Source: Acinetobacter sp. C32I (GTDB lineage: Bacteria; Pseudomonadota; Gammaproteobacteria; Pseudomonadales; Moraxellaceae). From it: 64,000 nt of DNA. The DNA lies in contig NZ_CP098480.1 in NCBI RefSeq assembly GCF_023702715.1, forward strand, positions 2,046,001 to 2,110,000. Reading direction: 5' to 3'. Both the position numbers and the translations under genes were made by a program. The notes under the pieces are model-generated. The model was given only the letters and a program-made list of their open reading frames with translations, searched no databases and had not been told where the DNA came from. Within the stretch, counting starts at the first letter, position 1; every line of letters begins with the position of its first letter. Positions 24,505-40,015 of this stretch are shown in pieces.

Positions 24505-26238
24505 TTAAGCATACTGAACCATACCTTGCGGGATCGCATTCAGCAGCTTTTTGGTATATTCATGCTGTGGATGTAAATACAGTTCATCCGAGTTGGCAAT
24601 TTCAACTAATTCGCCATGATTCATGACCATGACTTGATCAGAAATGTATTTCACCACTGATAAGTCATGCGAAATAAAAATATAACTCAGACCAAACTCG
24701 TCCTGTAAATCCTGTAATAAGTTCAGTACTTGCGCCTGTACAGAGACATCCAGTGCAGAAACCGATTCATCACAGATTAAAATTTCAGGCTTTAGGGTCA
24801 AGCAACGTGCGATCGCAATCCGCTGCCGTTGCCCACCTGAAAATTCATGTGGATAGCGATCATAGGCTTGCACAGGCAAACTGACGCGCTCTAACAGTTC
24901 CAAGGCCATCTTTTTTCGCTCAGCATCATTTTGACCTATGCCATGAATCCGCATCGGTTCCAATAAAATCTGCCCGATGGTAAAGCGTGGATTGAGTGAA
25001 GCATAAGGGTTCTGGAAAATGATTTGAATTTTGCGTTGGTACTGACAAAACTCTTTCTCACTCATGGCCAGAATATCTTTTCCACCAATCAAGGCTTGCC
25101 CGCCTGTGGCTTCATGCAAACGCATCAACAGTAAACCAATCGTGGTTTTACCTGAACCAGACTCCCCAACTAGCCCCAAGGTTTTACCTTTGGCCAACTG
25201 AAAAGAAACACCTTTAACCGCTTCAAATTCTTCTTGCCCCCACAAGCCCTTACGACTATAAAATGACTTTTTCAGGTCTTTGACCTCTAAAACAATTTGT
25301 TCATCGCCAGTCAGACCACGCGCACGTTGTTTCAGGTTTAAATCAGATAGATGGGTAGCTTCGATCAGTTGTCCATTTTCATCCAACTGCATAAAATCAC
25401 TGGTCACAGGCAAACGGTATGGACGAGTCGAGAGCTGTGGACGACAGTGCAACAAAGCACGGGTATACACATCTTTTGGTTGTTCCAGCACCTGTTCAAC
25501 TGAACCACTTTCCCGAATCTCACCATGACGCATCACGATCACTTCATCTGCGATTTCACCCACCAAGGCTAAATCATGAGTAATAAACAGCATCGACATT
25601 TCATGGCGTTGTCGTAATGACTCTAATAAATCAATGATCTGCTTTTGGATGGTGACATCTAAGGCTGTGGTTGGCTCATCGGCAATCAGCAACTTCGGCT
25701 CACAGGCAATTGCCATCGCAATCATGACCCGTTGTTGTTGCCCACCTGAAAGCTGACTCGGATAAGCATCGATCTTGGTTTCTGGTGCAGGAATACCAAC
25801 TTCTTTCAGCAACTCAAGTACCCGTGCTCTGGCCTGTTTGCGTCCCATGCCTAAATGAATACATAACACTTCAGCAATTTGATCTCCCACGGTAAAGACA
25901 GGATTCAACGAGGACATCGGTTCCTGAAAAATCATGGCAATATCCTTACCACAAATTTTGCGAATCTCTTTGGCCGATAAATTGAGTAAATCTTTACCTT
26001 CAAAGCAAATTTGACTCTGTTCGGCAATTTGACTTTGCCCTTTTGGCAACAGCCCCATCACCGCTAGGGAAGTGACCGATTTACCACTACCCGATTCCCC
26101 AACCAGTGCTACAGTTTTATTTTTAGGAATTGAAAATGAAATCCCTTTGACTGTTTCAATCCACTGCTTATTTTCACCCTTAAAGCTGACACGGAGATCA
26201 TCGACACGTAATAGCGTTGTTTCATTCTGATATTGCAT
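24505..26238 (-). CDS. Fused double ATP-binding subunit of a peptide ABC importer (YejF type)
   Basis: 577 aa with two complete ABC modules. Module 1 (about 10-265) has GESGSGKS, LSGGQQQRVMIA and LLIADEPTTALD. Module 2 (about 320-570) has GESGSGKT, FSGGQRQRIAIA and ILICDESVSALD. Opp-family C-terminal extensions occur after each. It corresponds to OppD plus OppF fused, as in YejF. It is the last gene of a leftward operon whose permease stop lies 12 bp upstream, and GGAG is 7 nt before the start. Energises peptide import at the inner membrane. Confidence 0.93.
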   Translation of the reverse strand: MQYQNETTLLRVDDLRVSFKGENKQWIETVKGISFSIPKNKTVALVGESGSGKSVTSLAVMGLLPKGQSQIAEQSQICFEGKDLLNLSAKEIRKICGKDIAMIFQEPMSSLNPVFTVGDQIAEVLCIHLGMGRKQARARVLELLKEVGIPAPETKIDAYPSQLSGGQQQRVMIAMAIACEPKLLIADEPTTALDVTIQKQIIDLLESLRQRHEMSMLFITHDLALVGEIADEVIVMRHGEIRESGSVEQVLEQPKDVYTRALLHCRPQLSTRPYRLPVTSDFMQLDENGQLIEATHLSDLNLKQRARGLTGDEQIVLEVKDLKKSFYSRKGLWGQEEFEAVKGVSFQLAKGKTLGLVGESGSGKTTIGLLLMRLHEATGGQALIGGKDILAMSEKEFCQYQRKIQIIFQNPYASLNPRFTIGQILLEPMRIHGIGQNDAERKKMALELLERVSLPVQAYDRYPHEFSGGQRQRIAIARCLTLKPEILICDESVSALDVSVQAQVLNLLQDLQDEFGLSYIFISHDLSVVKYISDQVMVMNHGELVEIANSDELYLHPQHEYTKKLLNAIPQGMVQYA

Positions 26239-26250
26239 TTTGTCTCTCCA

Positions 26251-27393
26251 CTATTTCAACTTAGGATCTAAAGCATCACGTAAGGCATCGGTAAACATCG
26301 AGAATGCAGTGACCAACACCGCCATTGCGATAGATGCCGCAGCCAATTGCCACCATTTACCTAAGATCAATTCGCTTTGCGCTTCATTCAACATACTGCC
26401 CCAAGACACCACGCCGACAGGTACACCAAAACCAAGGAAGCTCAGAATGACTTCGGATTTAATGAATGACACCACCAAAATCGAAATCTGTACCAAGGCA
26501 ATATGGCTCACGTTTGGGAAGATATGTACAAACATACGGCGTAGATGACTCACCCCAATGGCTTTGGCGGCAAGTACATATTCACGTGATTTATGTTTCA
26601 TATACTCGGCACGGATCAAACGGAATACCCCTGTCCAACCAGTTAAACCCAAGATCAACACAATCGACAGAATGCCTTTTTGTTGCAGGACTGCTGCAAT
26701 AGCCAGAACCAATAACAAATAAGGAATCGAGGTAAAAATGTTATAGAACCAGTTCAAAACATCATCGACCCAGCCACCAAAATAGCCTGCAATTGCACCC
26801 AAAAAAGTACCAATCACCACTGCCAATAACGCAGACAATAAACCGACCAGAATTGAGGTTTCAGCGCCCTTAATGGTTTTTAACAACACATCTTGTCCCC
26901 ACTTATCCGCCCCAAAAGGCAAAGTGGTTTTGAGCTCTTGTTTTTGATCGAGTAAATGCCCACCGAGTTGTTGATCAATCTGTTGCATATCTTCAGCCAA
27001 AGGATCAACCACGCCATAATTATCAATGACTGAACCACCTTGCTGTTCAGCCTGAATTTCCGCATTCAGCTGCTGAATCACGTCTTTTAAGGGATCGACT
27101 GGATTTTCAGGCAAAGCGGCTGTGCTTTCACTATTGGATTTAATTTGATCTGACTCTGTATCCGCACCCAAGAAAGTGGGTGGTGCATAGCTGACTGCAA
27201 CTTCTTTATTCCAGTTTGAGGCAATCACCCCTGTCATCGATAAAGCGAGCAGGATGAAATAAAATAACACCACCAAAAAAGACACCACGGCGATTCGATC
27301 TGACTTCAATCGATTCAAGGCCAAATGCCACAATCCTGTTGATGCAGAAGATTCATTCGAGGCAGCTTTGCTTTTAAAAATTGTACTGAGCAT
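26251..27393 (-). CDS. Peptide ABC importer permease (OppC/YejE type) with long periplasmic insert
   Basis: 380 aa. The second of two ATGs is chosen: AGGAGG (27400-27405) touches the first and lies 6 nt from the second. The first membrane helix is about residues 33-58, and five more lie between 178 and 375. The BPD-transport loop LAAKAIGVSHLRRMFVHIFPN carries the EAA motif. Between helices 1 and 2 lies a soluble segment of about 118 residues, Gln/Glu/Asp-rich around 80-155. It precedes the usual family motif LPFGADKWGQDVL. OppC-type loops are usually much shorter, so this is an unusual insert. Confidence 0.9.
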   Translation of the reverse strand: MLSTIFKSKAASNESSASTGLWHLALNRLKSDRIAVVSFLVVLFYFILLALSMTGVIASNWNKEVAVSYAPPTFLGADTESDQIKSNSESTAALPENPVDPLKDVIQQLNAEIQAEQQGGSVIDNYGVVDPLAEDMQQIDQQLGGHLLDQKQELKTTLPFGADKWGQDVLLKTIKGAETSILVGLLSALLAVVIGTFLGAIAGYFGGWVDDVLNWFYNIFTSIPYLLLVLAIAAVLQQKGILSIVLILGLTGWTGVFRLIRAEYMKHKSREYVLAAKAIGVSHLRRMFVHIFPNVSHIALVQISILVVSFIKSEVILSFLGFGVPVGVVSWGSMLNEAQSELILGKWWQLAAASIAMAVLVTAFSMFTDALRDALDPKLK

Positions 27394-27403
27394 CGTCATC
27401 CTC

Positions 27404-28342
27404 CTATTTCAACTGCACGCGAGGATCGAGGAGCTTATAAATCAGATCGGCGATCAAGTTAAAAATCATGGTGACTGCAGCGATATATACGGTAATGGCT
27501 TTAATCACTGGAAAATCACTGCGTTCAACCGCAATAATAATTTCCCGACCTATGCCTGGAATACCAAAGAAACGTTCAATCAGGAAAGCACCAATCAATA
27601 AGGCAGGCAGACTGGCCATCACTTCGGTGACAATAGGAATCGAGGCATTACGCAATACATGCACACCCAGTACCCTAGACTCGCCTACACCTTTGGCACG
27701 CGCAGTCCGCACATAATCTTGGTTAATTTCATCGAGCACGAAACTTCGATATAAACGTAGTGTTGGAGCAATACTCACCACCAACATGATTAAGATCGGC
27801 AACAAAGCATAATGGAATAAATTTTGACTGAAGTTATCGCTCCAGCCCTGTACTGGGAACCAACTTAACTGATAGGCCAAAACATATTGGAAGATGATGA
27901 TATACACCAAGATACTGATCGACATGCCAATGGTACACAGCATCATCACCATGCGATCGGTCAATGAACCACGCACTGATGCAACCGCCAATGCCAAGAT
28001 GATTGAAATCACGGTTTGTAAAATGGTCAATGGAATCAATAAGGTCAATGATGGGCCTAATCGGGTCAGAATAATCTGTGAGACAGATTCACCTGTACTC
28101 CAACTAGCACCATAATCGAAAGTCAGAATCTGTTTAATAAAAATCCACAGCTGTACATAATAAGGTTGATCGACCCCCAACTGTTTACGGATGTTTTCAA
28201 TTTGCTCAGGGTTGGACATTTTTCCTGCCAAAATATATGCAGGATCGCCCCCCACCCAGTTAAACAAGAAGAAAATCAGCAAAATGACACCCAACATGGT
28301 CGGGATCATTTGCCATAGTCTACGCACGACATAAGCAAGCAT
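27404..28342 (-). CDS. Peptide ABC importer permease (OppB/YejB type)
   Basis: 312 aa, six predicted membrane helices. MLAYVVRRLWQMIPTMLGVILL at the N-terminus, LGVDQPYYVQLW in the first loop, and the EAA-type loop YVRTARAKGVGESRVLGVHVLRNA are standard for DppB/OppB. AAGGA lies upstream of the ATG. It is 10 bp before the second permease and 12 bp after the M3 peptidase gene. Confidence 0.93.
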   Translation of the reverse strand: MLAYVVRRLWQMIPTMLGVILLIFFLFNWVGGDPAYILAGKMSNPEQIENIRKQLGVDQPYYVQLWIFIKQILTFDYGASWSTGESVSQIILTRLGPSLTLLIPLTILQTVISIILALAVASVRGSLTDRMVMMLCTIGMSISILVYIIIFQYVLAYQLSWFPVQGWSDNFSQNLFHYALLPILIMLVVSIAPTLRLYRSFVLDEINQDYVRTARAKGVGESRVLGVHVLRNASIPIVTEVMASLPALLIGAFLIERFFGIPGIGREIIIAVERSDFPVIKAITVYIAAVTMIFNLIADLIYKLLDPRVQLK

Positions 28343-28354
28343 AATGGCAAATCC

Positions 28355-30373
28355 TTATTTGACCCGTTGACCTGTAATTTCATTAAAGAAGGCTTTGTTA
28401 TCTGGCTCTCTGCCTAAGAAGTCTTTGACCAGTTGCGCTGCATTCTTTTGACTGCCTTGTGACAAAATCGCCTGACGGTAGCGTTGTCCCACTTCTGGAT
28501 TATTCAGGTTATCGCCAAAAGCAGACAACATATCTAAAGCCAAGACTTCAGACCACATATAGCCATAATAGCCCGCTTGATAGCCCATCAAATGTCCAAA
28601 CTGTCCAGGGAACTCGGTGTTCGGTACATAACCCAATGCGGTTGCCGATTCCATTTTTTTCCAGACATCCATCGGCTGTACTTTGAGTGCATCCGCACCA
28701 TGTAAAGCCATGTCATATTGTGCATATAGGGTTTGACGTGCATAACGCAGACCACGTCCATAATTATGTACCGATTTAAGACGCTCGATTAATGCATCAT
28801 CAACACGCGGACAAGCAGGGTCACAATAATCGGCCACTTTAGATAAGGTTTCTTTACGACGCGCCCACTCTTCATACATTTGTGATGGTGCTTCGACAAA
28901 GTCGCGTTCGACCGAAGTTCCTGACTGAGCTGAATAACGGGTTTTCGATAAAATGCCATGTAGGGCATGACCAAACTCATGTACAAAGGTTTCCAGCTCG
29001 TCACTATTTAAACCTTTGCGGTTAAAGTTGGTGACCAACACTGAAATGGGTTTACGTTTGCTCAGCGTACTGCCGCCATATACCCCCCAGACCGCAGCAT
29101 GCCCGTACTTGCCTTCACGTGGGAATTTATCCATGTATAGACTGCCAAGGACTTCACCTGTTTTTTTATCAGTGACGTCGTAATATTCCACTTCATCTTG
29201 CCATGCACCAACTTTGGCTGGCTTAAATTCGATGCCATAAAGATCAGAAGAAATCGCAAATAGCCACTTTTGTGCGGCTAAGGTTGGGAAATAATCACGC
29301 AGTTTTTCTTGGTCAATTTGGTATTTTTCTTTACGGAGTTTTTCACTCCAATAATTGACATTCCAGCGGTTAATTTCAGCTTTTTCTACCGTTGTGTTCA
29401 AGGTCTTGGCTTTAAATACACGGAGTTCTTGCACTTCTTTTTGCTCAAGGGGTGCAACGACGTTGTGTACATCGGCCAAGAAAGTGTTAACGGTTTTTGG
29501 CGTTTTCGCCATACGTTTCTTTAAGGCCCAATCGGCATAGCTTGGCTGACCAAACAGCTGTGCCAGTTCATAACGTAAGTCGATAATCTGTTTAAGAAGG
29601 ACTAAGTTCTTTTCTGTACCGCGACGTGTAAATGCAGTTTGATAACGTTTGCGTGCAGCATCACTATCAGCCAACTCCATAAAGGGTTGGTACTCTGGAT
29701 ATTCAAAACCTAATAAGTAATTGCCTTTATCATTTTTCTTTAGGCCTGAAATATAACTATCTGGTAAGCCTTTTAGCTCGGCAGGCGTAAATTCTAATTT
29801 TTCTGGGTTATCACGAATATTGCGGGAGAATTCTTGCGAAAGTTTGGTCAATTCATCAAAAATTGTTTTGACCCGTGCTCTTTTTGCAGCGGGGAGCTGT
29901 ACCCCAGTATCTTCAAAGGCATCAAGAATATCTTGGCGGTACTTAGTATCGATTGCATCGTTGGCTTTGATGTTTTTAAAATGTTGGTATAACTTCGGAT
30001 TCTGATAAATTTCGGTTTGTAGTTGATTCAGCTTAACTTCACAATCTTCAGCGGCTTGGCGTAATTTAGCATCTGGATCAACGTTGCTATATAAGCTAAT
30101 CGGCCCAGCAAAATCCTCAAAACTAGCCATCAACTGATCCCACTCCGCCAAGACGGGAGCGGCATCGGATTGCGGTTTGACTGTTTGTTTTTCCAGTTGA
30201 GCAATCCGCTGTTTAAATGTCTGTAAGTTGGCATCGCACCATTGTGCACTTTCACTGGTTTTTAAGATCGGTAACGTGCTTCCGATATTTTCAGCCCAAA
30301 TCCCCTGACTCACTCCTGTAACTGCCATCGATAACAGTCCTAGTGTCGACAACTTCAATATTCTTTTCGCCAT
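28355..30373 (-). CDS. Exported M3-family metallopeptidase (Dcp/OpdA-like)
   Basis: 672 aa. The start MAKRILKLS is chosen because GGAG is 7 nt upstream and a signal peptide follows (LGLLSMAVTG, cleavage near IWA-EN). Earlier in-frame starts overlap the upstream gene. Zinc site HEFGH at His465-Glu466-His469, with the third ligand Glu expected about 25-30 residues later (VEAPSQMYEEW region). M3 enzymes are usually cytoplasmic oligopeptidases or periplasmic Dcp. The signal and the place between binding proteins and permeases argue that it trims peptides in the periplasm before import. Confidence 0.92.
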   Translation of the reverse strand: MAKRILKLSTLGLLSMAVTGVSQGIWAENIGSTLPILKTSESAQWCDANLQTFKQRIAQLEKQTVKPQSDAAPVLAEWDQLMASFEDFAGPISLYSNVDPDAKLRQAAEDCEVKLNQLQTEIYQNPKLYQHFKNIKANDAIDTKYRQDILDAFEDTGVQLPAAKRARVKTIFDELTKLSQEFSRNIRDNPEKLEFTPAELKGLPDSYISGLKKNDKGNYLLGFEYPEYQPFMELADSDAARKRYQTAFTRRGTEKNLVLLKQIIDLRYELAQLFGQPSYADWALKKRMAKTPKTVNTFLADVHNVVAPLEQKEVQELRVFKAKTLNTTVEKAEINRWNVNYWSEKLRKEKYQIDQEKLRDYFPTLAAQKWLFAISSDLYGIEFKPAKVGAWQDEVEYYDVTDKKTGEVLGSLYMDKFPREGKYGHAAVWGVYGGSTLSKRKPISVLVTNFNRKGLNSDELETFVHEFGHALHGILSKTRYSAQSGTSVERDFVEAPSQMYEEWARRKETLSKVADYCDPACPRVDDALIERLKSVHNYGRGLRYARQTLYAQYDMALHGADALKVQPMDVWKKMESATALGYVPNTEFPGQFGHLMGYQAGYYGYMWSEVLALDMLSAFGDNLNNPEVGQRYRQAILSQGSQKNAAQLVKDFLGREPDNKAFFNEITGQRVK

Positions 30374-30399
30374 GCGCTTTCTCCAATTTAATCTGTTTG

Positions 30400-32217
30400 T
30401 TATTTCTTGTCTTGAATATCGATATACATCCATTCTGCTGGCAGAACAGGGTGTTTTTTATAACCAATCACACGCGGTTGCGCGACCACGGTGCGGTAAC
30501 GGGTCGACATAAATTGTACGGGCGAATAAAACTCTAACAACCGTGACATTTTGCGATACAACATATCGCGCTCAGGACCATCCTCAAGTCTCAAGGATTG
30601 CTCATAGAGACGGTCATATTCGGGTAATTTGAAGCAGGTATGATTGGTTGCATGAATATTTTTGCCATAAAACAACTGCACAAAATTATCTGCGTCAGGA
30701 TAATCTGCAATCCAAGCCGAAGCCTTAAACATGGTTTTACATTGTTTCTCCGCTTTTAGACCTTCCGCAAAAGGAACAGGCTTCGACACCATATTAATTT
30801 TAATATTGGTTAAATCTTTCTTGAGTAACTCGGCCATTTGCATACTTCGTGCGCTGCTGGTCGATGGCATAAACTCAATTACTAAAGGCTTGCCATCAGG
30901 TAGAGTTCGCCAACCATCCGGACCTACTTTGTAGTTGTAGCGATCCAATAGCAAATTGGCTGCCTTTACAGAATAAGGAATACTGCTTTTATAATTTGGA
31001 TCATGCCCTGCTACACCATATGGAATCGGTGATTCTAATTTTTGGGCATTGCCTTTGGCTAAAATCGTAATAAATTTTTCTTTGGAAATTGCCATAGACA
31101 TGGCACGGCGTAGTGCAATCTTATCTTTGCTAAAACCACCTACTACGGGGTTTTGGATATTCCAATACAAATAATCAATCGAAGGATCTGAGATACGAGA
31201 CAGTTGGATGCCCTTCTTGGCAAGTTCAGGTTTTAATGAACCATCGGATTGCAAAGCCTGTGCAGGTAATTCACCATCAAGTGTAAATAAATCCAAACCA
31301 TCTTTTTGGAATGATAGCCAACCCGATTGTGATTCTTCAATGACTTGAATATCGACCACACCAATTTGTGGCATTTTTTTGCCTTGCATCTGTTGTACGA
31401 TTTTTTGATCTTCAGGAGTGCTGGCCTTAAAGTCCCATGTAAAACCACGATAGTCTGGATTTGCCTTCAATATAATCCGTGAACCTGGTGTCCAATGTGA
31501 CAGTATATAAGGACCTGTTCCCACAGGCCGTCCCATCACATAGCCCGCCTTATCCCGATATTTTTCAATCACCTCTCGTGCCACTGCACCCGTGGGTTGA
31601 TGTGCCAACAGCATCGGAAAATTATGATTCGGTTCTTTTAAACGAATGACCAAAGTATAACGATCTGGTGTTTGTATCCCAGCCATCGGCTGATCGTAAT
31701 TAAATTTTCCTGTTTTACTGGCTTGTTGAATAAAAGGTTCTATTCCCACAATTTTATCTTCGAACAACCAGCTGTTCGGAGAATGCAAATTCGGATCAAG
31801 TAAACGTTTGAATGAATACGCATAATCCGCAGCGGTGAGCTCACGTGGCTTGCCTTTAAATGCAGGATCAGGGGTGAAATAAATCCCTTTCTGAATCCGA
31901 ATGGTATAGGTCAACCCATCCGCACTCACTTCAGGTAAGGCCACTGCCGTTTTCGGTACCAACTTGGCGGGCGAAGCTAAATAATCATAGGTATAGAGCG
32001 TTTCAAAAATCGAATACAAGATATGTGCTGAATATAGATCTTGTGTCGCTACGGGATCAAATCCTGTTTCTGCCACTGGAAAGGCATAGCGTAAGACTTT
32101 TTTAGGATCGGCTGGGTTTTTCGCTTCTGCAAGCGAGCCCCCAAAACTCAGTGTTGTCCCCAGTAGCAGTGCCAGACAGCTCCGTTGCATCGAAAGTTTT
32201 AAATTTTGCTTCATCAT
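30400..32217 (-). CDS. Extracellular peptide-binding protein (SBP family 5), copy B
   Basis: 605 aa. N-terminal signal peptide (CLALLLGTTLSFGGSLAEA). The family-5 lobes are recognisable from LRYAFPVAETGFDP, YTIRIQKGIYFTPDPAFKG and VGTGPYILSHWTPGSRI to FVQLFYGKNIHATNHTC near the C-terminus. It is paralogous to the next gene, sharing FTPDPAFKGKPREL/FTDDPAFKGKRREL and ANPDYRGF. The ends of the two genes are only 11 bp apart. Likely binds oligopeptides in the periplasm. Confidence 0.9.
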   Translation of the reverse strand: MMKQNLKLSMQRSCLALLLGTTLSFGGSLAEAKNPADPKKVLRYAFPVAETGFDPVATQDLYSAHILYSIFETLYTYDYLASPAKLVPKTAVALPEVSADGLTYTIRIQKGIYFTPDPAFKGKPRELTAADYAYSFKRLLDPNLHSPNSWLFEDKIVGIEPFIQQASKTGKFNYDQPMAGIQTPDRYTLVIRLKEPNHNFPMLLAHQPTGAVAREVIEKYRDKAGYVMGRPVGTGPYILSHWTPGSRIILKANPDYRGFTWDFKASTPEDQKIVQQMQGKKMPQIGVVDIQVIEESQSGWLSFQKDGLDLFTLDGELPAQALQSDGSLKPELAKKGIQLSRISDPSIDYLYWNIQNPVVGGFSKDKIALRRAMSMAISKEKFITILAKGNAQKLESPIPYGVAGHDPNYKSSIPYSVKAANLLLDRYNYKVGPDGWRTLPDGKPLVIEFMPSTSSARSMQMAELLKKDLTNIKINMVSKPVPFAEGLKAEKQCKTMFKASAWIADYPDADNFVQLFYGKNIHATNHTCFKLPEYDRLYEQSLRLEDGPERDMLYRKMSRLLEFYSPVQFMSTRYRTVVAQPRVIGYKKHPVLPAEWMYIDIQDKK

Positions 32218-32228: not shown

Positions 32229-34025
32229 TTATTTTTGATTTGGTGAAACAATATCTAAGTATTGCCAGTTGGTATTCATAATTGGATGAGCTTTAAATCC
32301 CTGCACCTCAGGTTGAATCAACCAGTTCCGAATCCGTGTATCTTGTAAAATCCACGTTCCATCTGCTTCAATTTGGCGACTCATTTTTTCATAGAATGGC
32401 ATACGTTTTTCAGGGGCTTGCTGCATCGCCTGTTTATATAAATTGTCATAAGCAGCTGACTGATAACAGGATTGATTACCACGACCAACATTCGGACCAT
32501 AAAGCAATTGCGTGAAATTTTCACCCTCTGGATAATCCGCATGCCATGCTCCACTCCACATCATGTATTGACACTGGGTTGCGGCTTTTAAGTTATCGGC
32601 AAAATTACTGACTTTAAAGTCTGCCCGAATCCCGATTACATCTAGATTTTTCTTCCACAATTCAGAATACATCACGGAAGCTGTACCACTCTCGGTATTT
32701 ATTTTTAAGGTTAAAGGCTTGCCATTGGGCAGATTACGATAGCCATCTGGGCCTTTTTTATAGCCGAAATGATTCAGTAATTTATTGGCTAGTACAGGAT
32801 TGTAACCAATGCTACTGCGATAATTCGGGTTATGACCATTAATGCCTGCAGGTACCAGCATTTCAGCCTTAACGGCCTGACCTTTTCTTAAGATACGAAT
32901 ATATTCATTGACATTAAAAGACATGGCGATGGCACGTCTTAACGCAATTTTATCTAGGCTATTCCCACCAACAACAGGATCACGCATATTCAACATTGAA
33001 TAGGTGATCTCTGCCTCTTTATTGGCATACAAACGTATACCCTGCTTTTGCATTTCTGCTTTTAACTGATTATTTTGATCAAGCACTTTAGGAATTGCAC
33101 TTGAAGTGACCTTATCAAAATCCAGTTGTTTGGACTGAAAAGCGAGCCAACGTGATTGTTCTTCTTCGATAATGCTGATATTGACTTTGCCAATTTGCGG
33201 CATTTGCTTGCCACTCATTTCTTTAACCAGCTGGTTATCCCACGCCGTACCTGTCGATTTAAAATTCCAGACAAAACCGCGATAATCAGGATTTGCAACT
33301 AATTCGATCTTGCTGCGGGGTACATATTTGCTCAGCATATAAGGCCCTGTTCCCACAGGATGCATGGCTAAACGATCTTTATAGTATTCAACCACTTCCC
33401 GTGCAGTCGCACCAAAGGTACTATAGGCCAAAATATAAGGGAAATTATAATCAGGTTGCGTCAAGGTAAATTGAATCGTATATTTATCCAGTGCTTTAAC
33501 GCCGTCAATCTTGGCATCATAGTTAAATGTGCCCGTTTTTTTGGCTTGGTCCACCAGTGCATTTGCACCAACAATTTTATTATCAATAAAAGAAAATGCT
33601 GAGGCATGATTTTTAGGATCTAATATCCGCTTAATGGAATAAACATAATCCTCTGCAACCAGCTCTCTGCGTTTACCTTTAAATGCAGGATCATCGGTAA
33701 AATAAATCCCTGGCTTTATTTTAAATATATAAACCTGACCATTTTTTTCAATCACAGGTAGGCTTTCTGCTGTAGATGGAACCAATTTTACTGGGTTAGC
33801 GAGATAATCGTATTGAAGCAATCTTTCAAAAATTACATCGGCCACATTTCCGCTGTAAAAATTAAAAGTTTTAACCATATCAAAACCATCATCTGGGGCT
33901 TCAAAAGCAACACGGAGTACTTTATCTGCCTGAGCAGGTGTTTTTGCATACCCCATCGGCATAAATGCAATAACGGTTGATAATACAGTGACCGTAAAAA
34001 AAGTTGACTTCAAATCAGTGCTCAC
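32229..34025 (-). CDS. Extracellular peptide-binding protein (SBP family 5), copy A
   Basis: 598 aa from a GTG start; the signal peptide runs through FMPMGYA. Same architecture as copy B: LRVAFEAPDDGFD, IKPGIYFTDDPAFKG, HPVGTGPYMLSKYVP and FTQLLYGPNVGRGNQSC. First gene of the leftward operon. A near-consensus sigma54 promoter lies about 165 bp upstream on this strand. Two tandem paralogous binding proteins served by a single permease pair suggest two ligand classes. Confidence 0.9.
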   Translation of the reverse strand: MSTDLKSTFFTVTVLSTVIAFMPMGYAKTPAQADKVLRVAFEAPDDGFDMVKTFNFYSGNVADVIFERLLQYDYLANPVKLVPSTAESLPVIEKNGQVYIFKIKPGIYFTDDPAFKGKRRELVAEDYVYSIKRILDPKNHASAFSFIDNKIVGANALVDQAKKTGTFNYDAKIDGVKALDKYTIQFTLTQPDYNFPYILAYSTFGATAREVVEYYKDRLAMHPVGTGPYMLSKYVPRSKIELVANPDYRGFVWNFKSTGTAWDNQLVKEMSGKQMPQIGKVNISIIEEEQSRWLAFQSKQLDFDKVTSSAIPKVLDQNNQLKAEMQKQGIRLYANKEAEITYSMLNMRDPVVGGNSLDKIALRRAIAMSFNVNEYIRILRKGQAVKAEMLVPAGINGHNPNYRSSIGYNPVLANKLLNHFGYKKGPDGYRNLPNGKPLTLKINTESGTASVMYSELWKKNLDVIGIRADFKVSNFADNLKAATQCQYMMWSGAWHADYPEGENFTQLLYGPNVGRGNQSCYQSAAYDNLYKQAMQQAPEKRMPFYEKMSRQIEADGTWILQDTRIRNWLIQPEVQGFKAHPIMNTNWQYLDIVSPNQK

Positions 34026-34198: not shown

Positions 34199-34214
34199 TG
34201 CTAATTTCATGCCA
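34199..34214 (-). promoter_or_regulatory. Candidate sigma54 promoter for the peptide-import operon
   Basis: Minus strand reads TGGCAT-GAAAT-TAGCA against consensus TGGCAC-N5-TTGCA/T: two mismatches, but the essential GG and GC dinucleotides are present at exact spacing. Start of transcription would be near 34188. Confidence 0.5.
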
Positions 34215-34308
34215 CTTTTCAAATAAAAAAATTATGTTTAATTTTTAATCAAAACGTATTCTTAGCAGGTCTAGTTTTCACGCATCTTAAATAAAAGTAA
34301 CTTTATGC

Positions 34309-34393
34309 CAAATCATATTTTTATATATTATTTTCCATTTCAATGAAATAAAAATAATAAACCATATGTTTTATAACAACAAAATATGATTTG
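34309..34393. promoter_or_regulatory. 13-bp perfect inverted repeat, candidate enhancer site
   Basis: CAAATCATATTTT at 34309-34321 and its exact reverse complement at 34381-34393, with 59 bp between. A smaller palindrome ATTTC-AAT-GAAAT lies inside (34337-34349). Distances of about 95 and 210 bp to the two flanking sigma54-type promoters suit an activator site shared by both operons. Confidence 0.4.
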
Positions 34394-34601
34394 CACCATA
34401 AAAAAGCAAAAATAAAACTTTATGATTCATTTTAATGCATTACAAAACCATACCTTATTTGGAACTTTATGTTAACCAATCCACATTTAAAATTATTTCA
34501 ACATTTTTAATATTTAGTAAAAATATGAAAAGCTTATATATAAAAACTAAAACACTTTTACACATTTTATTCTACATTAAGCGAAATCTAAAAATAGGGT
34601 T

Positions 34602-34617
34602 TGGCACAGCTCTTGCT
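34602..34617 (+). promoter_or_regulatory. Consensus sigma54 (-24/-12) promoter for the TonB-dependent receptor
   Basis: TGGCAC-AGCTC-TTGCT matches the sigma54 consensus TGGCAC-N5-TTGCW at every defined position. Transcription would start near 34628, giving a leader of about 45 nt before the receptor ATG. Confidence 0.78.
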
Positions 34618-34672
34618 AAAACGGATTTATTGAATTTTTAGAGTGGCAATCCATTTAGGGGTTAAATAATCA

Positions 34673-37357
34673 ATGAAAAAAGCCAACTTCGCTCAACCAA
34701 GTGCTCTGCCAAAAGCGAGCAAAAAGATGCTTAAACTCAGTACGCTCAGTTTAAGTATGCTGTGTTTAACCATGGTTCATGCTGCTGAGGCCGAATCGCC
34801 TTCCGAGGAAAAAGCAGCCAAAGTCGTAAAAGTTGCGGTTACAGGTTCATCCATCAAAGGCGTTGCAGCACAGAGTGCTTCACCGATTACCATTGTCAAA
34901 GTGGATGAAATTCTAAAACAAGGGGTCACAACAACCGAAGAAGCACTCTCAAAAATTACAGCCAATCAATCAAATTTTGTCACGGCTTCAAATGTAGGAA
35001 CCAGTAAAACACAAGGATCTGCTGCAAATTTAAGGGGAATTGGTGCCAACAAGACCTTGGTTTTGCTCAATGGTCGTCGTTTGGCAGCCAATGCCTATGA
35101 CAGCGGTGTGACCAATTTAAATATCATTCCACTGGCGATGCTTGATCGTATTGAAGTGCTGAAAGATGGCGCATCAGCGATCTATGGTACCGATGCGATT
35201 GGCGGTGTAGTCAACTTTATTACTAAAAAACAATTTAGCGGTTTAAATTTCAGTGCCGACTATCAAAAACCAGAACAAACAGGTGGCGAGCAACAAAACT
35301 ATTCCATCTTTGGTGGTTATGGTGATTTAGAAGAAAATGGATTCAATGTTTTCGGGGTTGTTGATTATCGACGTGGTGACGAAGTCATGGCAAAAGACCG
35401 TAAGGTCAGCCGTCGTGGGGGTGTATTACCCGAATTAGGTGTCAATCGAACCAGTAGTGGTTCTTTCCCGGCAAATTTATACGATACAGAGACAGGTACA
35501 TTCGGCAGTCCTTATGCCAAAACAGGATGTGGCGATAATCCGCTATTCTTCAGTAATGATGGAGTGACCTGCCGTTATAACAGTCAAGCTGTGATTGGCA
35601 TTATTCCAAAAACAGAAGACGTTTCTGTCATGGGTCGTGTAACCGCAAAAATTAATGATCATTTCAATGCGATTGGTGAGTACGTTTACGCACGTAGTGA
35701 AGTGACCACATCCGTAGCACCTGACGTATTTTTTGACTTACCGATGAACCCATCAAGCAAATATTATCCTGGGAATGGTATTACACCTACCATGGATAAT
35801 GTCAGTGGTCCACTAGAATTATATTTACGTTCACAAGCAGGCAATCGTATCAGCAATAGCGTGAATGATTCACACCGGATTTTTGCTGGTCTTGAAGGTG
35901 ATGCGTATGGTTGGGATATTAATACTGGCGTAACCTATGCCCGTAGTAATGCTGCAGATAACGTTTTAAATGGTTATCTTAATTACAATAAAACCGCTGC
36001 AGCATTATTAGATGGCACTCTCAACCCCTTTGGTGCACAAAGCTCAGCCGATGGTGATGTATGGAATGGCTTAAGCGTTAAAGGTAAATATCTAGATGCT
36101 AAATTAGACTCAACTACAGTCGATTTCACTGCAAGCCGCCCGATCTATACATTACCAGCTGGTGATGTCGGTTTTGCTGTTGGTGCAAGTTATCGCCGTG
36201 ATGATTGGCAATCGAAGACACTGGCTGAAATTGCAAGTGTTGCACCAAGTACAGGAGTCGATCCAAATGAACCCGTAAATGAAGGTTCACGCAATATCAA
36301 AGCTGTTTTCACAGAATTACATATCCCTTTGCATAAAACTTTAGAAGCTCAGCTTGCAGCTCGATATGATGATTACAGTGATTTTGGTGATACCTTTAAT
36401 CCCAAATTCTCCCTTCGTTGGGAACCAATCAAACAGTTAATGTTTAGAACAAGCTATACCAAAGGTTTTAGAGCACCGACATTACAAGAAATGCATTCAC
36501 CTAAATCCGTCACCAATACAGCTGCAACGTATAATGATCCGCTACTTTGCCCTGGTGGTGTTCCAGCAGCGGGTGCATTACCTGCACGTGACTGTGGTAT
36601 GCAATTTGATCGACAAAATGGTGGTAACCAAAACCTAGAGCCTGAAAAATCAGATTCATTTACCGCTGGCATGGTATTTGAGCCCATCAAAAACTTGGTC
36701 TTCACGCTCGATTATTTCGATATCAAAGTCAAAAATCAGATTACCACTATTTCAGAGACTGCCATTTTTGCTGACCCTGTGAAATATGCAGATAAATTCA
36801 TCCGTAATGCAGATGGCTCGCTGAACTATATCAATACAACCAATCAAAATTTAGGTGGTATCAAAACCTCAGGATTTGATGTCGGTGCAGCTTGGCGCTC
36901 TCCAATGACCAGCACAGGCCAATTTGGTCTCAGTATTGATGGTACTTATGTAACAGATTACCAATACCAAGAAAACAAAGGCATGCCATGGGTTGGTGTT
37001 GCTGGAAGCTATGCAGGCTTGGATTATCAGGCAATCGTTTTACGCTGGAAACATACAGCTAATTTAGATTGGCGCTATGAGAACTGGGCACTCAACTTAC
37101 AGCAAAACTTCTCTAAAGGTTATAAAGACCAAAACTCTAATGGGCAAGACCATTCTGTAGGCGACTATACCACTTATAACCTTTCAGGCACTTATAAAGG
37201 TTTCAAGAATCTAGAACTCACACTTGGTCTTAAAAATATGTTTGATGCTGAACCACCGGCTTCAAATGTCGTCGATAACTTCCAAATGGGTTATGACCCG
37301 CGTTATGCAGATGCTGTTGGTCGTAGCTATTTCGTTCGCGGTACCTATAAATTTTAA
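34673..37357 (+). CDS. TonB-dependent outer-membrane receptor
   Basis: 894 aa. A long signal peptide with LSTLSLSMLCLTMV is cleaved near VHAAEA. A likely TonB box KVVKVAVTG sits at about residues 50-58. The plug domain carries NLRGIGANKTLVLLNGRRL and DRIEVLKDGASAIYGTDAIGGVVNFITK. The barrel ends in Phe (RSYFVRGTYKF), with FRTSYTKGFRAPTLQEMHSP and a late KTSGFDVGAA motif. The GSSIKG start and size resemble the large receptors of peptide or oligomer uptake rather than a specific siderophore receptor; the ligand is unknown. TAGGGG lies 11 nt upstream. It is divergent from peptide import genes and followed by its own TonB system. Confidence 0.92.
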   Translation: MKKANFAQPSALPKASKKMLKLSTLSLSMLCLTMVHAAEAESPSEEKAAKVVKVAVTGSSIKGVAAQSASPITIVKVDEILKQGVTTTEEALSKITANQSNFVTASNVGTSKTQGSAANLRGIGANKTLVLLNGRRLAANAYDSGVTNLNIIPLAMLDRIEVLKDGASAIYGTDAIGGVVNFITKKQFSGLNFSADYQKPEQTGGEQQNYSIFGGYGDLEENGFNVFGVVDYRRGDEVMAKDRKVSRRGGVLPELGVNRTSSGSFPANLYDTETGTFGSPYAKTGCGDNPLFFSNDGVTCRYNSQAVIGIIPKTEDVSVMGRVTAKINDHFNAIGEYVYARSEVTTSVAPDVFFDLPMNPSSKYYPGNGITPTMDNVSGPLELYLRSQAGNRISNSVNDSHRIFAGLEGDAYGWDINTGVTYARSNAADNVLNGYLNYNKTAAALLDGTLNPFGAQSSADGDVWNGLSVKGKYLDAKLDSTTVDFTASRPIYTLPAGDVGFAVGASYRRDDWQSKTLAEIASVAPSTGVDPNEPVNEGSRNIKAVFTELHIPLHKTLEAQLAARYDDYSDFGDTFNPKFSLRWEPIKQLMFRTSYTKGFRAPTLQEMHSPKSVTNTAATYNDPLLCPGGVPAAGALPARDCGMQFDRQNGGNQNLEPEKSDSFTAGMVFEPIKNLVFTLDYFDIKVKNQITTISETAIFADPVKYADKFIRNADGSLNYINTTNQNLGGIKTSGFDVGAAWRSPMTSTGQFGLSIDGTYVTDYQYQENKGMPWVGVAGSYAGLDYQAIVLRWKHTANLDWRYENWALNLQQNFSKGYKDQNSNGQDHSVGDYTTYNLSGTYKGFKNLELTLGLKNMFDAEPPASNVVDNFQMGYDPRYADAVGRSYFVRGTYKF

Positions 37358-37365
37358 TGCGTTTC

Positions 37366-37401
37366 ATCACTACGGCATGAATATTGTTCTGTCGTAGTGA
37401 T
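37366..37401 (+). other. Inverted repeat between receptor gene and tonB
   Basis: ATCACTACG (37366-37374) and CGTAGTGAT (37393-37401) can pair with an 18-nt loop, 9 bp after the receptor stop. There is no T-run, so it may be a processing or stability hairpin or a protein site rather than a terminator. Confidence 0.4.
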
Positions 37402-37510
37402 TCACCGTAATCCTCTGTTTCATCACATTCCAAGCGGTTGTTGTCAGTCTAAATCGATATAAGCCGCCCCTAATGGATATGAATTACTGATTACAATTTC
37501 AGGAGTATTT

Positions 37511-38224
37511 ATGGGCATCCCCTTTTCTGAGAGTGAAAATCAACCTGCCAAACGCCTTGTCGGTATTGGTCTGGTATTATTTCTACATCTCATTATCGCC
37601 TATATTCTGATGACAAGTTTAGCGACCGACTTTAGCAAGCCTGTCGATAAGCCTGTAGAACTACAGATTATTCAGGACATCAAACCACCACCGCCTCCAA
37701 AACCAGAGGAACCTAAACCTAAAGAAAAGCCACCCGAGCCACCAAAAATGGTCGAAAAAGTGGCCAAGATGCCTGACCCACCTAAACAGGTAGAGAAAGT
37801 CACACCTGTACAAAAACCAGCCCCAGCTCAACCTACCAAAACGGCTGTTGCGACACCAACACCTACGCCTGCTGCAGCAAGTCCGAGCCCAGTTGCTGCT
37901 CCAACAGCGCCTGCCGCACCTGCGACTCCAGCTAAACCAGCAGGAATTTCACGTGGCGTTTCTGAAGGCGAAGCGGGCTGCCAAAAACCTGAATATCCAC
38001 GTGAAGCCTTGATGAATGAAGAAGAAGGTACGGTGCGTATTCGTGTACTGGTAGATGGTTCAGGCAAAGTCATTGACTCAAAAGTCAAAAAATCAAGCGG
38101 CAGTAAAAGCTTAGATAAGGCAGCTATTAAAGCGTATAGCCTGTGTACGTTTAAAGCAGCCATGAAAGACGGTGTACCACAACAAGAATGGTACGAAATC
38201 GAATATCCATTCACGATTTCCTAA
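37511..38224 (+). CDS. tonB: TonB energy-transducing protein
   Basis: 237 aa. A single N-terminal membrane helix (about 18-37: LVGIGLVLFLHLIIAYILMT) is followed by a Pro/Lys/Glu-rich spacer (KPPPPPKPEEPKPKEKPPEP region) and an Ala/Pro linker. The C-terminal TonB domain (from about 155: PEYPREALMNEEEGTVRIRVLVD) contains two Cys (GCQKP and SLCTF) that could form a disulfide. CAGGAG precedes the start. First gene of tonB-exbB-exbD-exbD. Confidence 0.94.
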   Translation: MGIPFSESENQPAKRLVGIGLVLFLHLIIAYILMTSLATDFSKPVDKPVELQIIQDIKPPPPPKPEEPKPKEKPPEPPKMVEKVAKMPDPPKQVEKVTPVQKPAPAQPTKTAVATPTPTPAAASPSPVAAPTAPAAPATPAKPAGISRGVSEGEAGCQKPEYPREALMNEEEGTVRIRVLVDGSGKVIDSKVKKSSGSKSLDKAAIKAYSLCTFKAAMKDGVPQQEWYEIEYPFTIS

Positions 38225-38265
38225 TTAAATGCATTGAACAAACAAATTTTTTGGAGAATTTAAAG

Positions 38266-39141
38266 ATGACAAACACAGCAAAACGTATCTCTCGAATCGC
38301 AGCAATTGGCCTCATCGCAGGAACAACCTTACTTCCTGTTGCAAGCGTTTGGGCGGATGAAACCACGCAAACCACAGCCGTAACAACGGCAGCGACTGAT
38401 GCCACAGCACAAACTACACCGACACCTCCGCCATTGCCTGCAACCGCCGAAAAAGTACACAACCCTTATGGTTTAGAAGCCCTCTGGCGCGAAGGTGACT
38501 TAGTCGCAAAATCAACGTTATTTATCTTGGTACTAATGTCGATTGGAACCTGGTACATCATTCTGTCGAAAGTGTTCCAACAAAGTAAAATCAAACGCCA
38601 TGGCACAGAAGCTGAACGTCATTTCTGGGAAGCAGAGTCTTTAAATAGTGCTGCAGAAAGTTTAAATAGCAATAGTAGCTACCGATATATTGCTGAAAAA
38701 GGCATTCGCTCAACCAAACATCACGATGGCACCTTATTAGAACGTATTGATTTCAACACATGGGTGACCATTTCAATCCAACGTGCCATTGAGAAAGTAC
38801 AAAGTCACTTAAGCAATGGTCTAGCCTTCCTTGCTACTGTGGGTTCAACCGCGCCATTTGTCGGCTTATTTGGAACAGTTTGGGGGATTTATCACGCGCT
38901 TACTGCGATCGGTATTTCAGGCCAAGCATCGATTGATAAAGTTGCTGGACCTGTGGGTGAAGCACTGATTATGACGGCAATTGGTCTTGCAGTCGCTGTC
39001 CCAGCTGTACTTGGTTATAACTGGTTAACTCGTCGTAATAAAGCGGTTATGGACAATGTTCGCTCATTTGGTTCAGACCTACATGCCGTACTCCTCAGCG
39101 GTGACTTAAACAGTAATCACCCAAACCGTGATTCTAAATAA
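38266..39141 (+). CDS. exbB: ExbB proton-channel subunit with N-terminal extension
   Basis: 291 aa from ATG 38266 with TTGGAG about 9 nt upstream; a longer frame inside tonB is rejected. The N-terminal signal-like segment (IAAIGLIAGTTLLPVASVWA) and a Thr/Pro-rich periplasmic stretch precede the first core helix (STLFILVLMSIGTWYIIL). The MotA/TolQ/ExbB core has FLATVGSTAPFVGLFGTVWGIYHAL and ALIMTAIGLAVAVPAVLGYN. This extended form is like the ExbB of pseudomonads. Confidence 0.95.
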   Translation: MTNTAKRISRIAAIGLIAGTTLLPVASVWADETTQTTAVTTAATDATAQTTPTPPPLPATAEKVHNPYGLEALWREGDLVAKSTLFILVLMSIGTWYIILSKVFQQSKIKRHGTEAERHFWEAESLNSAAESLNSNSSYRYIAEKGIRSTKHHDGTLLERIDFNTWVTISIQRAIEKVQSHLSNGLAFLATVGSTAPFVGLFGTVWGIYHALTAIGISGQASIDKVAGPVGEALIMTAIGLAVAVPAVLGYNWLTRRNKAVMDNVRSFGSDLHAVLLSGDLNSNHPNRDSK

Positions 39142-39152
39142 GGAACACCATT

Positions 39153-39581
39153 ATGGGCATGATGATTAATTCAGATCAAAGTGACGATGATGTCATCGGG
39201 ACGATTAACACGACCCCGCTGGTCGACATCATGCTGGTGCTGCTGATTATCTTTTTAATCACAGTTCCAGTGGTCACACACACTGTTCCGGTAAAACTAC
39301 CTGAAGAAAAAAATACACCTTATGCCACCACCCCACAAAATATTCAGCTTTCCGTCAATAAAACGGGGGATATTTTCTGGAATGAACAACACGTTGCAAA
39401 TAAAGAAACTTTACTTGCCCGTTTACAAGCTGAAGCACAAAAACGTCCACAGCCTGAGGTTCATATTCGTGGCGATCAACAGACACATTATGAAGCGATA
39501 GATCAGGTGATCAGCACAACACAGCAAGCAGGGATTGGCAAAATCGCTTTTGTTACGACTCCCCCTGCTTCTACACCATAA
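39153..39581 (+). CDS. exbD: ExbD, copy 1
   Basis: 142 aa. Cytoplasmic N-terminus, one helix with the proton-path Asp in TTPLVDIMLVLLIIFLITVP, and a periplasmic domain. 11 bp after exbB. Partner of TonB/ExbB in using the proton-motive force. Confidence 0.94.
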   Translation: MGMMINSDQSDDDVIGTINTTPLVDIMLVLLIIFLITVPVVTHTVPVKLPEEKNTPYATTPQNIQLSVNKTGDIFWNEQHVANKETLLARLQAEAQKRPQPEVHIRGDQQTHYEAIDQVISTTQQAGIGKIAFVTTPPASTP

Positions 39582-39595
39582 TAGGAGAATCACAC

Positions 39596-40015
39596 ATGGG
39601 TATGAATGTGGGTTCGAAAAATGATGAAGAAGATGTGATGCTCGACGTCAACATGACACCGCTGATTGATGTCATGTTGGTGCTGCTGATTATGTTCATT
39701 ATCACCATCCCAATTCCAAACAACGCCATTAACATTAATTTGCCAAATGGTACACCACCACCGCCAACGGATCAGAAGCCACCCGAAACCATTAATTTAC
39801 GGGTTGATGCGCAAGGGCATATTTTTTGGAATGATCAAGCGGTTGCTGATCGTTCAGCCTTAAAAGCCTTGTTTGATTCGGTCGCGCAAAAAGTTGATCA
39901 AGATCAGATTAAGTTTAAACCTGATGCACAGGCTGAATATAAGAATATCGCGATGGTGATGGCACTCGCTCAACAGAGCAATGTCACCAAAATCGGTATC
40001 GTCAGTAATAACTAA
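39596..40015 (+). CDS. exbD: ExbD, copy 2
   Basis: 139 aa. The helix MTPLIDVMLVLLIMFIITIP with conserved Asp. Clearly paralogous to copy 1 but divergent in the periplasmic part (NLPNGTPPPPTDQKP). 14 bp after copy 1, with AGGAG upstream. Two ExbDs in one operon suggests a mixed ExbD assembly. Confidence 0.93.
   Translation: MGMNVGSKNDEEDVMLDVNMTPLIDVMLVLLIMFIITIPIPNNAININLPNGTPPPPTDQKPPETINLRVDAQGHIFWNDQAVADRSALKALFDSVAQKVDQDQIKFKPDAQAEYKNIAMVMALAQQSNVTKIGIVSNN

What the first reader, a model, noticed from the sequence alone, without database searches (positions are those of the whole stretch)
24505..40015. Divergent receptor/TonB and peptidase/ABC operons look like one dedicated peptide-uptake system
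Seen: back-to-back operons contain every layer needed to take a peptide from outside to cytoplasm. These are an outer-membrane TonB-dependent receptor, its own TonB-ExbB-ExbD-ExbD, two peptide-binding proteins, an exported M3 zinc peptidase, two Opp-type permeases and a fused double ATPase. Known: TonB receptors with private TonB systems, and YejABEF-type importers, each exist separately. Inference: this locus joins them into a capture, cut and import machine for larger peptides or peptide-linked ligands (including possible antibiotic or siderophore peptides). I do not know a characterised example with this exact gene set.
Basis: partly seen in the sequence, partly recalled or inferred. Interest (0 to 1): 0.78.

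Follow-up and report, generated by a model that had tools for sequence, protein, structure and literature searches.

The report
Nitrogen-regulated TonB peptide-uptake locus
A block of eleven neighbouring Acinetobacter genes looks like one machine for pulling peptides through the whole cell envelope; it appears to be switched on by nitrogen shortage rather than iron shortage, and its outer receptor is repeatedly swapped for different versions between species.

Summary
In 119 Acinetobacter genomes the exported M3 peptidase occurs in 61 and the receptor in 52; 51 have both, and in the 48 with both on one contig they are always neighbours. The pairing recurs in another Moraxellaceae genus (without the peptidase), Collimonas and Glaciimonas. 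New: both operons carry conserved sigma-54 promoters (receptor side 60 of 61 loci; importer side 49 of 58 receptor-bearing loci, but 2 of 27 loci with no receptor on the fetched DNA, and those two genomes have it on another contig). Eight of the genome's other ten perfect sites precede NarK-like, ammonium-transporter, amidase and associated genes, and NtrC is one of four strong activators: peptide-nitrogen scavenging is the simplest reading. Also new: the receptor body is exchanged as a cassette (31 of 81 close pairs under 75% identity; 0 of 81 for each other gene), mostly in outer loops. The 'YejABEF-type' label fails; a Yej operon lies elsewhere. Peptide transport, NtrC binding and use of the adjacent TonB are inferred, and the modules also occur apart. 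Closest kinds: Fus, RagAB, SppR-SppABCD.

The parts
24505..26238 (-). fused double ABC ATPase (Opp/Dpp type)
   Evidence: Pfam ABC_tran, 2 stretches; below the YejF (562 vs 834) and GsiA (589 vs 1077) cut-offs
26251..27399 (-). OppC-like permease with a long stretch between the N-terminal segment and the permease domain
   Evidence: BPD_transp_1 at residues 197-382, weak OppC_N at 23-53
27404..28342 (-). OppB-like permease, the best conserved protein of the locus
   Evidence: BPD_transp_1; mean identity 0.918 over 45 loci
28355..30373 (-). exported M3 (thimet/neurolysin-like) zinc oligopeptidase; ORF open to 30433
   Evidence: Peptidase_M3 343 bits; HEFGH at residue 485 of the 692-aa ORF with downstream Glu; best solved relatives neurolysin and thimet oligopeptidase
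30400..32217 (-). peptide-type solute-binding protein 2
   Evidence: SBP_bac_5; WIADY aligned to WCADY of OppA
32229..34025 (-). peptide-type solute-binding protein 1 (GTG start), 46% identical to SBP2
   Evidence: SBP_bac_5; identity; WHADY aligned to WTGDN of DppA
34199..34214 (-). sigma-54-like promoter of the SBP-M3-ABC operon, TGGCATGAAATTAGCA (GG-N10-GC kept), beginning 189 nt before the SBP1 start
34392..34397 (+). TGCACC, possible NtrC-type half-site between the two promoters (inconclusive)
   Evidence: TGCAC in 37 of 51 intergenic segments, shuffled mean 4.5, but not at one fixed place
34602..34617 (+). sigma-54 promoter of the receptor-TonB operon, TGGCACAGCTCTTGCT (perfect consensus)
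   Evidence: strict site in 60 of 61 loci, shuffled mean 0.015
34673..37357 (+). TonB-dependent receptor, 22-strand barrel by my reading of the model, with large outer loops (L2 77, L7 57, L8 42 residues)
   Evidence: Plug and TonB_dep_Rec; AlphaFold2 pLDDT 82.2, pTM 0.80; loops
34950..37500 (.). exchanged cassette: receptor body replaced by another allele in close relatives; limits approximate
   Evidence: against L011, L012, L089: 500-nt bins from 35000 are 60-70% identical, bins before 79-98% and from 37500 to 39999 90-97%; edges in 60-nt bins
37511..38224 (+). TonB
   Evidence: TonB_C 8.9e-19
38266..39141 (+). ExbB/TolQ-type motor protein (ORF open from 38188)
   Evidence: MotA_ExbB 3.6e-32
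39153..39581 (+). ExbD, first copy
   Evidence: ExbD 3.6e-31
39596..40015 (+). ExbD, second copy
   Evidence: ExbD 2.8e-25

Best explanation
The locus is a nitrogen-scavenging import system for peptides or small proteins. Under nitrogen limitation NtrC with sigma-54 would switch on both operons. The receptor captures a bulky peptide-like ligand with large, strain-variable outer loops and is powered by its neighbouring TonB-ExbB-ExbD-ExbD. In the periplasm the M3 oligopeptidase trims the ligand; two binding proteins pass fragments to the Opp-type ABC importer; the cytoplasm releases the nitrogen. Shown here: gene content, conserved linkage, conserved divergent sigma-54 sites, absence of the importer-side site where the receptor is absent, receptor cassette exchange. 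Inferred: the peptide ligand, NtrC as the activator, receptor use of this particular TonB, and the order of steps.
For: Linkage: both proteins in 51 of 119 genomes, adjacent in 48 of 48 same-contig cases; divergent layout also in six Collimonas loci, Glaciimonas soli and another Moraxellaceae genus. Regulation: sigma-54 site before the receptor in 60 of 61 loci (shuffled mean 0.015) and before the importer in 49 of 58 receptor-bearing loci. Nine of the genome's 11 perfect sites sit 43-158 nt before a gene: two NarK-like transporters, an ANTAR regulator, an FmdA-like amidase, an NMT1-like binding protein, an ammonium transporter, two Gcw_chp proteins, and this receptor. NtrC is present above cut-off. 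Peptide side: M3 with HEFGH; two SBP_bac_5 proteins whose Asp aligns with that of OppA or DppA. Loops diverge most, while the N-terminal segment expected to hold the TonB box is 97-100% identical between allele types of L011, L012, L089 and the window.
Against: M3 occurs without a receptor match in ten of 119 Acinetobacter genomes, and 13 of 22 betaproteobacterial M3 loci show no receptor in the fetched DNA, some cut by contig ends, so the importer can probably work alone. M3 is missing from some receptor+ABC loci. No clear NtrC site was found. The seven Collimonas/Glaciimonas loci and the sister genus lack the importer-side site. The receptor's nearest solved folds are B12, siderophore, colicin and heme receptors, and the SBPs also resemble heme-binding protein A. 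A review reports that A. baumannii tonB1 mutants grow poorly when iron-starved.
Confidence: 0.62

Rival explanations
1. Two separate members of one nitrogen regulon that happen to share a divergent promoter region: the ABC importer takes peptides that enter through porins, while the receptor imports an unrelated nitrogen compound.
For: The parts also occur apart; in Collimonas, Glaciimonas and the sister genus only the receptor side carries a recognisable sigma-54 site.
Against: Adjacency in 48 of 48 judged Acinetobacter genomes and in two other lineages; importer-side site in 0 of the 25 loci without a receptor once the two contig-cut cases L041 and L059 are set aside; L062 has receptor and M3 side by side with no SBP or ABC genes found.
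Confidence: 0.2
2. An iron-source system (heme, hemoprotein or peptide siderophore): the receptor takes up an iron-carrying peptide or protein and the peptidase frees the iron, as in Fus.
For: Fus-type logic (passages); SBPs resemble HbpA; receptor weakly matches hemoglobin/transferrin and hemin receptor models, below cut-off (137 vs 324 and 129 vs 317 bits); A. baumannii tonB1 mutants are iron-growth deficient per review.
Against: The promoter is sigma-54 type, of a kind found mainly before nitrogen genes in this genome; the same review says only tonB3 is induced by iron limitation. No Fur-box scan was run.
Confidence: 0.1
3. The cassette exchange reflects escape from phages or bacteriocins that use the receptor, not changes in ligand.
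For: Divergence concentrates in outer loops; TonB receptors are common bacteriocin and phage receptors (general knowledge; pectocins on FusA, passage).
Against: Nothing here separates this from ligand specialisation; it is compatible with the main explanation.
Confidence: 0.5

Closest known systems
Fus / protease-associated import systems (FusA-FusB-FusC; YddB-PqqL)
   Same: TonB-dependent receptor, a TonB-like partner and a periplasmic protease act on an imported protein (passages)
   Different: Their protease is M16, here M3; the E. coli relative is iron/Fur-regulated, here sigma-54 sites; here two peptide SBPs and a full Opp-type ABC importer are linked
RagAB of Porphyromonas gingivalis
   Same: TonB-dependent uptake of peptides; four receptor alleles among strains (passages)
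   Different: RagA works with the lid protein RagB; no such lid gene matched in this locus, and another phylum
SppR-SppABCD of Pseudomonas aeruginosa
   Same: Cited as a 'putative xenosiderophore transporter'; as recalled, a TonB-dependent receptor with an ABC importer (citation seen)
   Different: As recalled, no peptidase and no own TonB-ExbB-ExbD-ExbD; sequences were not compared here
NppA1A2BCD of Pseudomonas aeruginosa
   [quoted passage not shown] two SBPs by name
   Different: No linked receptor or TonB known to me; the paper was not held and sequences were not compared
TonB1-ExbB1-ExbD1.1-ExbD1.2 of A. baumannii ATCC 19606
   Same: Same gene set by name, with two ExbD; the review says only TonB2 and TonB3 complement an E. 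coli tonB mutant (passage)
   Different: Identity by sequence not tested; a linked receptor or ABC importer is not mentioned in the passages read

Membership tests
YejABEF (microcin C importer) | permeases above the NCBIfam YejB and YejE cut-offs | tested here: not met
   115.7 of 445 and 112.9 of 439 bits; the genome's other operon passes with 451.8 and 466.5
YejABEF (microcin C importer) | ATPase above the YejF cut-off | tested here: not met
   562.2 of 834. The other operon's ATPase also falls short, 565 of 834, so this cut-off alone is weak
Opp/Dpp-type peptide ABC importers (broad family) | SBP_bac_5, two BPD_transp_1 permeases, Opp-type ATPases | tested here: met
   all above Pfam cut-offs
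Opp/Dpp-type peptide ABC importers (broad family) | Asp that binds the peptide amino end (recalled as OppA Asp419) | tested here: met
   WIADY of SBP2 aligned to WCADY of OppA, WHADY of SBP1 to WTGDN of DppA; W.ADYP-type pattern in 67 of 78 SBP1 and 83 of 86 SBP2 copies
Opp/Dpp-type peptide ABC importers (broad family) | binding and transport of peptides | not testable with these tools
   needs binding or uptake assay
Peptidase family M3 | Peptidase_M3 domain with HExxH and downstream Glu | tested here: met
   343 bits; HEFGH in the window's protein and HE[FMA]GH in 93 of 96 copies
Fus-type protease-associated import | M16 protease beside the receptor | tested here: not met
   the peptidase is M3; no M16 match among the eleven proteins
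Fus-type protease-associated import | receptor with TonB-like partner and periplasmic protease linked | tested here: met
   TonB_C protein downstream; M3 with signal-like N-terminus (by eye) in the divergent operon
SusCD/RagAB | SusD/RagB-type lid protein | tested here: not met
   no such Pfam match among the eleven proteins or the nine other neighbouring ORFs scanned
sigma-54 promoter | TGGCAY-N5-TTGCW / invariant GG-N10-GC | tested here: met
   receptor side perfect; importer side keeps GG-N10-GC with one changed base in the second box. Activity not tested
NtrC regulon | NtrC binding sites upstream of the promoter | tested here: inconclusive
   TGCAC half-sites in 37 of 51 segments, not at one place, no clear palindrome
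A. baumannii TonB1 system | orthology to tonB1-exbB1-exbD1.1-exbD1.2 | not tested
   no ATCC 19606 sequence was compared; gene set by name only

The most novel reading that the evidence does not exclude
A complete envelope-spanning uptake system, with TonB-energised outer-membrane capture, periplasmic cutting and ABC import, that is run by the nitrogen (NtrC/sigma-54) regulon and whose receptor is a horizontally exchanged, loop-variable cassette inserted into an otherwise stable locus. This would make TonB-dependent transport a nitrogen-foraging function in Acinetobacter and would explain what the TonB1-type system is for.
Probability: 0.5. Interest if true: 0.75.

Novelty: new variant of a known kind. 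Interest (0 to 1): 0.62.

Why it matters
TonB-dependent uptake in proteobacteria is studied mainly for iron and B12 (general knowledge). A TonB system tied to nitrogen regulation and to an exported oligopeptidase would widen that picture and could give a function to a TonB set whose role is puzzling (per the review, TonB1 does not replace E. coli TonB and is not iron-induced; that it is the same set is not tested here). The receptor cassette exchange points to strong local pressure on a surface protein, useful for understanding ligand range and phage or bacteriocin recognition in this genus.

Tried and rejected
Rejected: YejABEF membership. Rejected: a dedicated activator inside the locus; no reading frame with a bEBP GAFTGA-type motif behind a Walker A was found in the 64-kb window or in the loci fetched by then. 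Rejected: a known structured RNA in 24000-41000; Rfam gave 0 matches at gathering scores. Sigma-70 and terminator scans were near shuffle level (8 vs 10.6 sd 3.5; 4 vs 2.9 sd 1.9). Set aside as probable chance: two of the 11 genomic sigma-54 sites (L122, followed at 34 nt by a 99-aa reading frame and at 330 nt by a Sel1-repeat gene; L126, antisense inside a 487-aa ORF). Not resolved: the enhancer site. A class-wide survey with M3 found 10 of 369 genomes at E <= 1e-90; of the nine other than the window's own, none showed an SBP or permease match in the fetched DNA, several cut by contig ends (one, L095, had a 28% ATPase match; one, L094, had TonB and ExbB matches). The structural comparison listed no FusA or RagA among its 50 best rows, which does not exclude them. 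A Fur-box scan was not run.

Literature: PMC searches returned no listed title or abstract start that I recognised as describing this gene set; the library is open-access only. Read as passages: PMC8811193, PMC3859900, PMC12728205, PMC7406228, PMC12702245, PMC11817032, PMC8443478, PMC6793856. Zimbler 2013, Runci 2019, Pletzer 2015 and 2016 and Madej 2020 were not read: seen as citations or recalled only.
Full report
WHAT IS THERE. The window holds two divergent operons around a 647-bp intergenic stretch. Leftward: SBP1, SBP2, M3 oligopeptidase, OppB-like and OppC-like permeases, fused double ATPase. Rightward: TonB-dependent receptor, TonB, ExbB/TolQ, ExbD, ExbD. In NCBIfam neither SBP and neither permease reaches the cut-off of any listed transporter model; the ATPase falls short of YejF and GsiA but exceeds the cut-offs of several half-size ATPase models (NikD, NikE, CntD, CntF, PRK11308, PRK10419), which a fused double ATPase does easily (the Yej operon's ATPase does the same). 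The genome has one other SBP_bac_5 protein; it sits with permeases that pass the YejB and YejE cut-offs. The M3 scores 290 of 927 bits on the oligopeptidase A model; the genome's second M3 protein is presumably oligopeptidase A, not tested. The locus M3's best solved relatives are neurolysin and thimet oligopeptidase, it has HEFGH and, by eye, a signal-like N-terminus from residue 21 of the long ORF.

IS IT A UNIT. In 119 Acinetobacter genomes, counted by hand from the listings: M3 orthologues (57-100% identity) in 61; full-length receptor orthologues (55-100%) in 52, plus one C-terminal piece in G100 (which scored at most 7 candidates a genome). Both occur in 51; M3 without a receptor match in 10 (one of these, G111, is only 64% complete; nine of the ten were also looked at as fetched loci, G003 was not); receptor without M3 in one, G103. 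Of the 51, three have them on different contigs (G048, G109, G112); in the other 48 the starts lie within about 7.1 kb. Of 80 loci fetched with M3 (the best 80 of 132), 58 are Acinetobacter: 47 of these show the divergent receptor; of the other 11, L033, L041 and L059 are cut by contig ends and by their coordinates belong to G109, G048 and G112, which have the receptor on another contig. Among 22 betaproteobacterial loci, nine have a TonB receptor in the fetched DNA: six Collimonas and Glaciimonas soli with the orthologous one (about 50% identity), and two with distant ones, L077 and L086; in L086 a TonB-ExbB-ExbD-ExbD set also sits beside the ABC operon in another orientation. In a family sample, the OppB-like permease passed E <= 1e-80 in 14 of 119 Moraxellaceae genomes, from 2 of 16 genera; one genome of the second genus (G496) has the whole divergent layout without M3, and only distant M3 proteins (29-32%).

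NATURAL EXPERIMENTS. The parts are not inseparable. G103 and G496 keep receptor, TonB set, SBP and ABC but no M3. L062 keeps the receptor set and M3 with no SBP or ABC gene found within its 22 kb. L021-L023 show no receptor-TonB set, with the right-hand neighbours (the 221-aa gene and bioD) beside SBP1. G100 keeps TonB-ExbB-ExbD-ExbD and only the C-terminal part of the receptor, with no ABC genes in 17 kb. G038 has an interrupted M3 and no SBP1 match; G093 has only a short TonB piece beside ExbB-ExbD-ExbD.

REGULATION. A perfect sigma-54 consensus, TGGCACAGCTCTTGCT, lies at 34602-34617, 55 nt before the receptor start. One perfect site in 64 kb is not by itself remarkable (25 of 100 shuffles have at least one); its conservation is. 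TGGCAY-N5-TTGCW occurs within 450 nt of the receptor start in 60 of 61 loci, against a shuffled mean of 0.015 loci; in the one miss, L107, a site lies just upstream of the ORF. On the other strand, TGGCATGAAATTAGCA at 34199-34214 keeps GG-N10-GC and begins 189 nt before SBP1. This looser form occurs in 49 of 58 receptor-bearing loci; the nine without are L053, where the SBP1 match is poor but a site pair is still found, L107, and the seven Collimonas/Glaciimonas loci. Where no receptor was on the fetched DNA it occurs in 2 of 27, namely L041 and L059, whose genomes have the receptor on another contig; the shuffled mean was 0.02 of 85. So in Acinetobacter the importer-side site goes with the receptor. 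The DNA between the two sites is poorly conserved. The shuffles keep base composition only.

NITROGEN CONTEXT. The same perfect pattern occurs 11 times in the genome, against 3 for the reversed control. Nine sites lie 43-158 nt before a gene: two NarK-family-like transporters (304.6 and 301.4 of 311.7 bits, just under cut-off), an ANTAR response regulator, an FmdA_AmdA protein (above the Pfam cut-off; 88 of 500 bits on the formamidase model), an NMT1-like binding protein, an ammonium transporter (above the TIGR00836 cut-off), two Gcw_chp proteins within 6 kb of it, and this receptor. The other two are probably chance. The genome has one sigma-54 gene and eight matches to the activator domain, four strong (173-249 bits) and four weak (25-28 bits). 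Of the strong ones NtrC (751 of 620 bits) and RtcR (806 of 650) are above cut-off; the other two have no model above cut-off and by content and neighbours look like SfnR and PilR types (these two names are my reading). NtrC is therefore the likely activator, but I could not show its binding site. A paper on Pseudomonas stutzeri says amino-acid/peptide uptake genes are upregulated by NtrC there (one passage).

RECEPTOR EXCHANGE. Over 45 complete loci, in 81 pairs whose other ten proteins average at least 95% identity, the receptor is under 75% identical in 31 and none of the other ten proteins is in any pair. The change is abrupt: against A. proteolyticus (L011), A. gyllenbergii (L012) and A. 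dispersus (L089) the 500-nt bins from 35000 are 60-70% identical, those before it 79-98%, and those from 37500 to 39999 90-97% (edges). The window's receptor is 86% identical to that of the more distant Acinetobacter sp. NIPH 298 (L052), whose M3 is only 70%. Receptor types need 11 changes on the tree of the other ten genes, against 8 at least; the receptor data reject the gyllenbergii-type species as one clade (p-AU 1.3e-12, quick tree; the group was chosen after seeing the identities). One control receptor of the same genome stays at 95-98% in the five relatives where this one is 62-66%. Equal contig lengths suggest two receptor types within A. dispersus and within A. proteolyticus (inference). 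On the AlphaFold2 model (pLDDT 82.2) the segment expected to hold the TonB box is 97-100% identical between the window and L011, L012, L089, plug 82-86%, strands 67-70%, outer loops 50-51%. Loop and turn sides were assigned by the usual barrel topology. This fits one periplasmic partner and a changing outside.

HOW IT PROBABLY WORKS. Nitrogen limitation, then NtrC and sigma-54 at both promoters, then receptor capture of a bulky peptide or small protein, TonB-driven entry, trimming by M3, delivery by two SBPs to the ABC importer, and release of nitrogen inside. Peptide chemistry rests on the M3 family, the SBP family and the aligned Asp, not on an assay. The main doubt is whether receptor and importer act in series or are two nitrogen genes side by side.

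RELATION TO KNOWN SYSTEMS. It works most like Fus (receptor, TonB-like partner, periplasmic protease) but fails the M16 test and has a different promoter type. It resembles RagAB in proposed peptide cargo and in receptor alleles but has no lid gene. SppR-SppABCD pairs, as recalled, a receptor with an ABC importer (citation). The TonB set matches A. baumannii TonB1 in gene names only. I rate it a new variant of a known kind.

Noticed in passing
40090-40755 (-): 221-aa protein with no Pfam or NCBIfam match, found at 75-99% identity beside the locus in a number of relatives; stays next to SBP1 where the receptor set is missing in L021-L023, L025, L026.
   Followed up: partly
41617-42132 (-): 171-aa protein with no match above a cut-off (weak hits are to membrane proteins) between bioC (TIGR02072, above cut-off) and a bioD-like AAA_26 gene, among biotin-type genes at 40975-45331.
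   Followed up: partly
L076: Noviherbaspirillum locus with four tandem SBP1-like genes before SBP2-M3-ABC: binding-protein expansion.
   Followed up: no
L102 (G100): TonB-ExbB-ExbD-ExbD kept beside a receptor remnant with no ABC genes in 17 kb; may show how a TonB set becomes an orphan.
   Followed up: partly
L062: Acinetobacter calcoaceticus JUb89: receptor set and M3 are neighbours, no SBP or ABC genes found in 22 kb, both sigma-54-type sites present.
   Followed up: no
26251-27399 (-): OppC-like permease has a long Gln/Glu-rich stretch between its N-terminal segment and permease domain; role unknown, conservation of the stretch not examined.
   Followed up: no
G000:C1:3284772-3290145: Two Gcw_chp proteins with perfect sigma-54 sites near the ammonium transporter: possible nitrogen-regulated envelope proteins of unknown function.
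   Followed up: no
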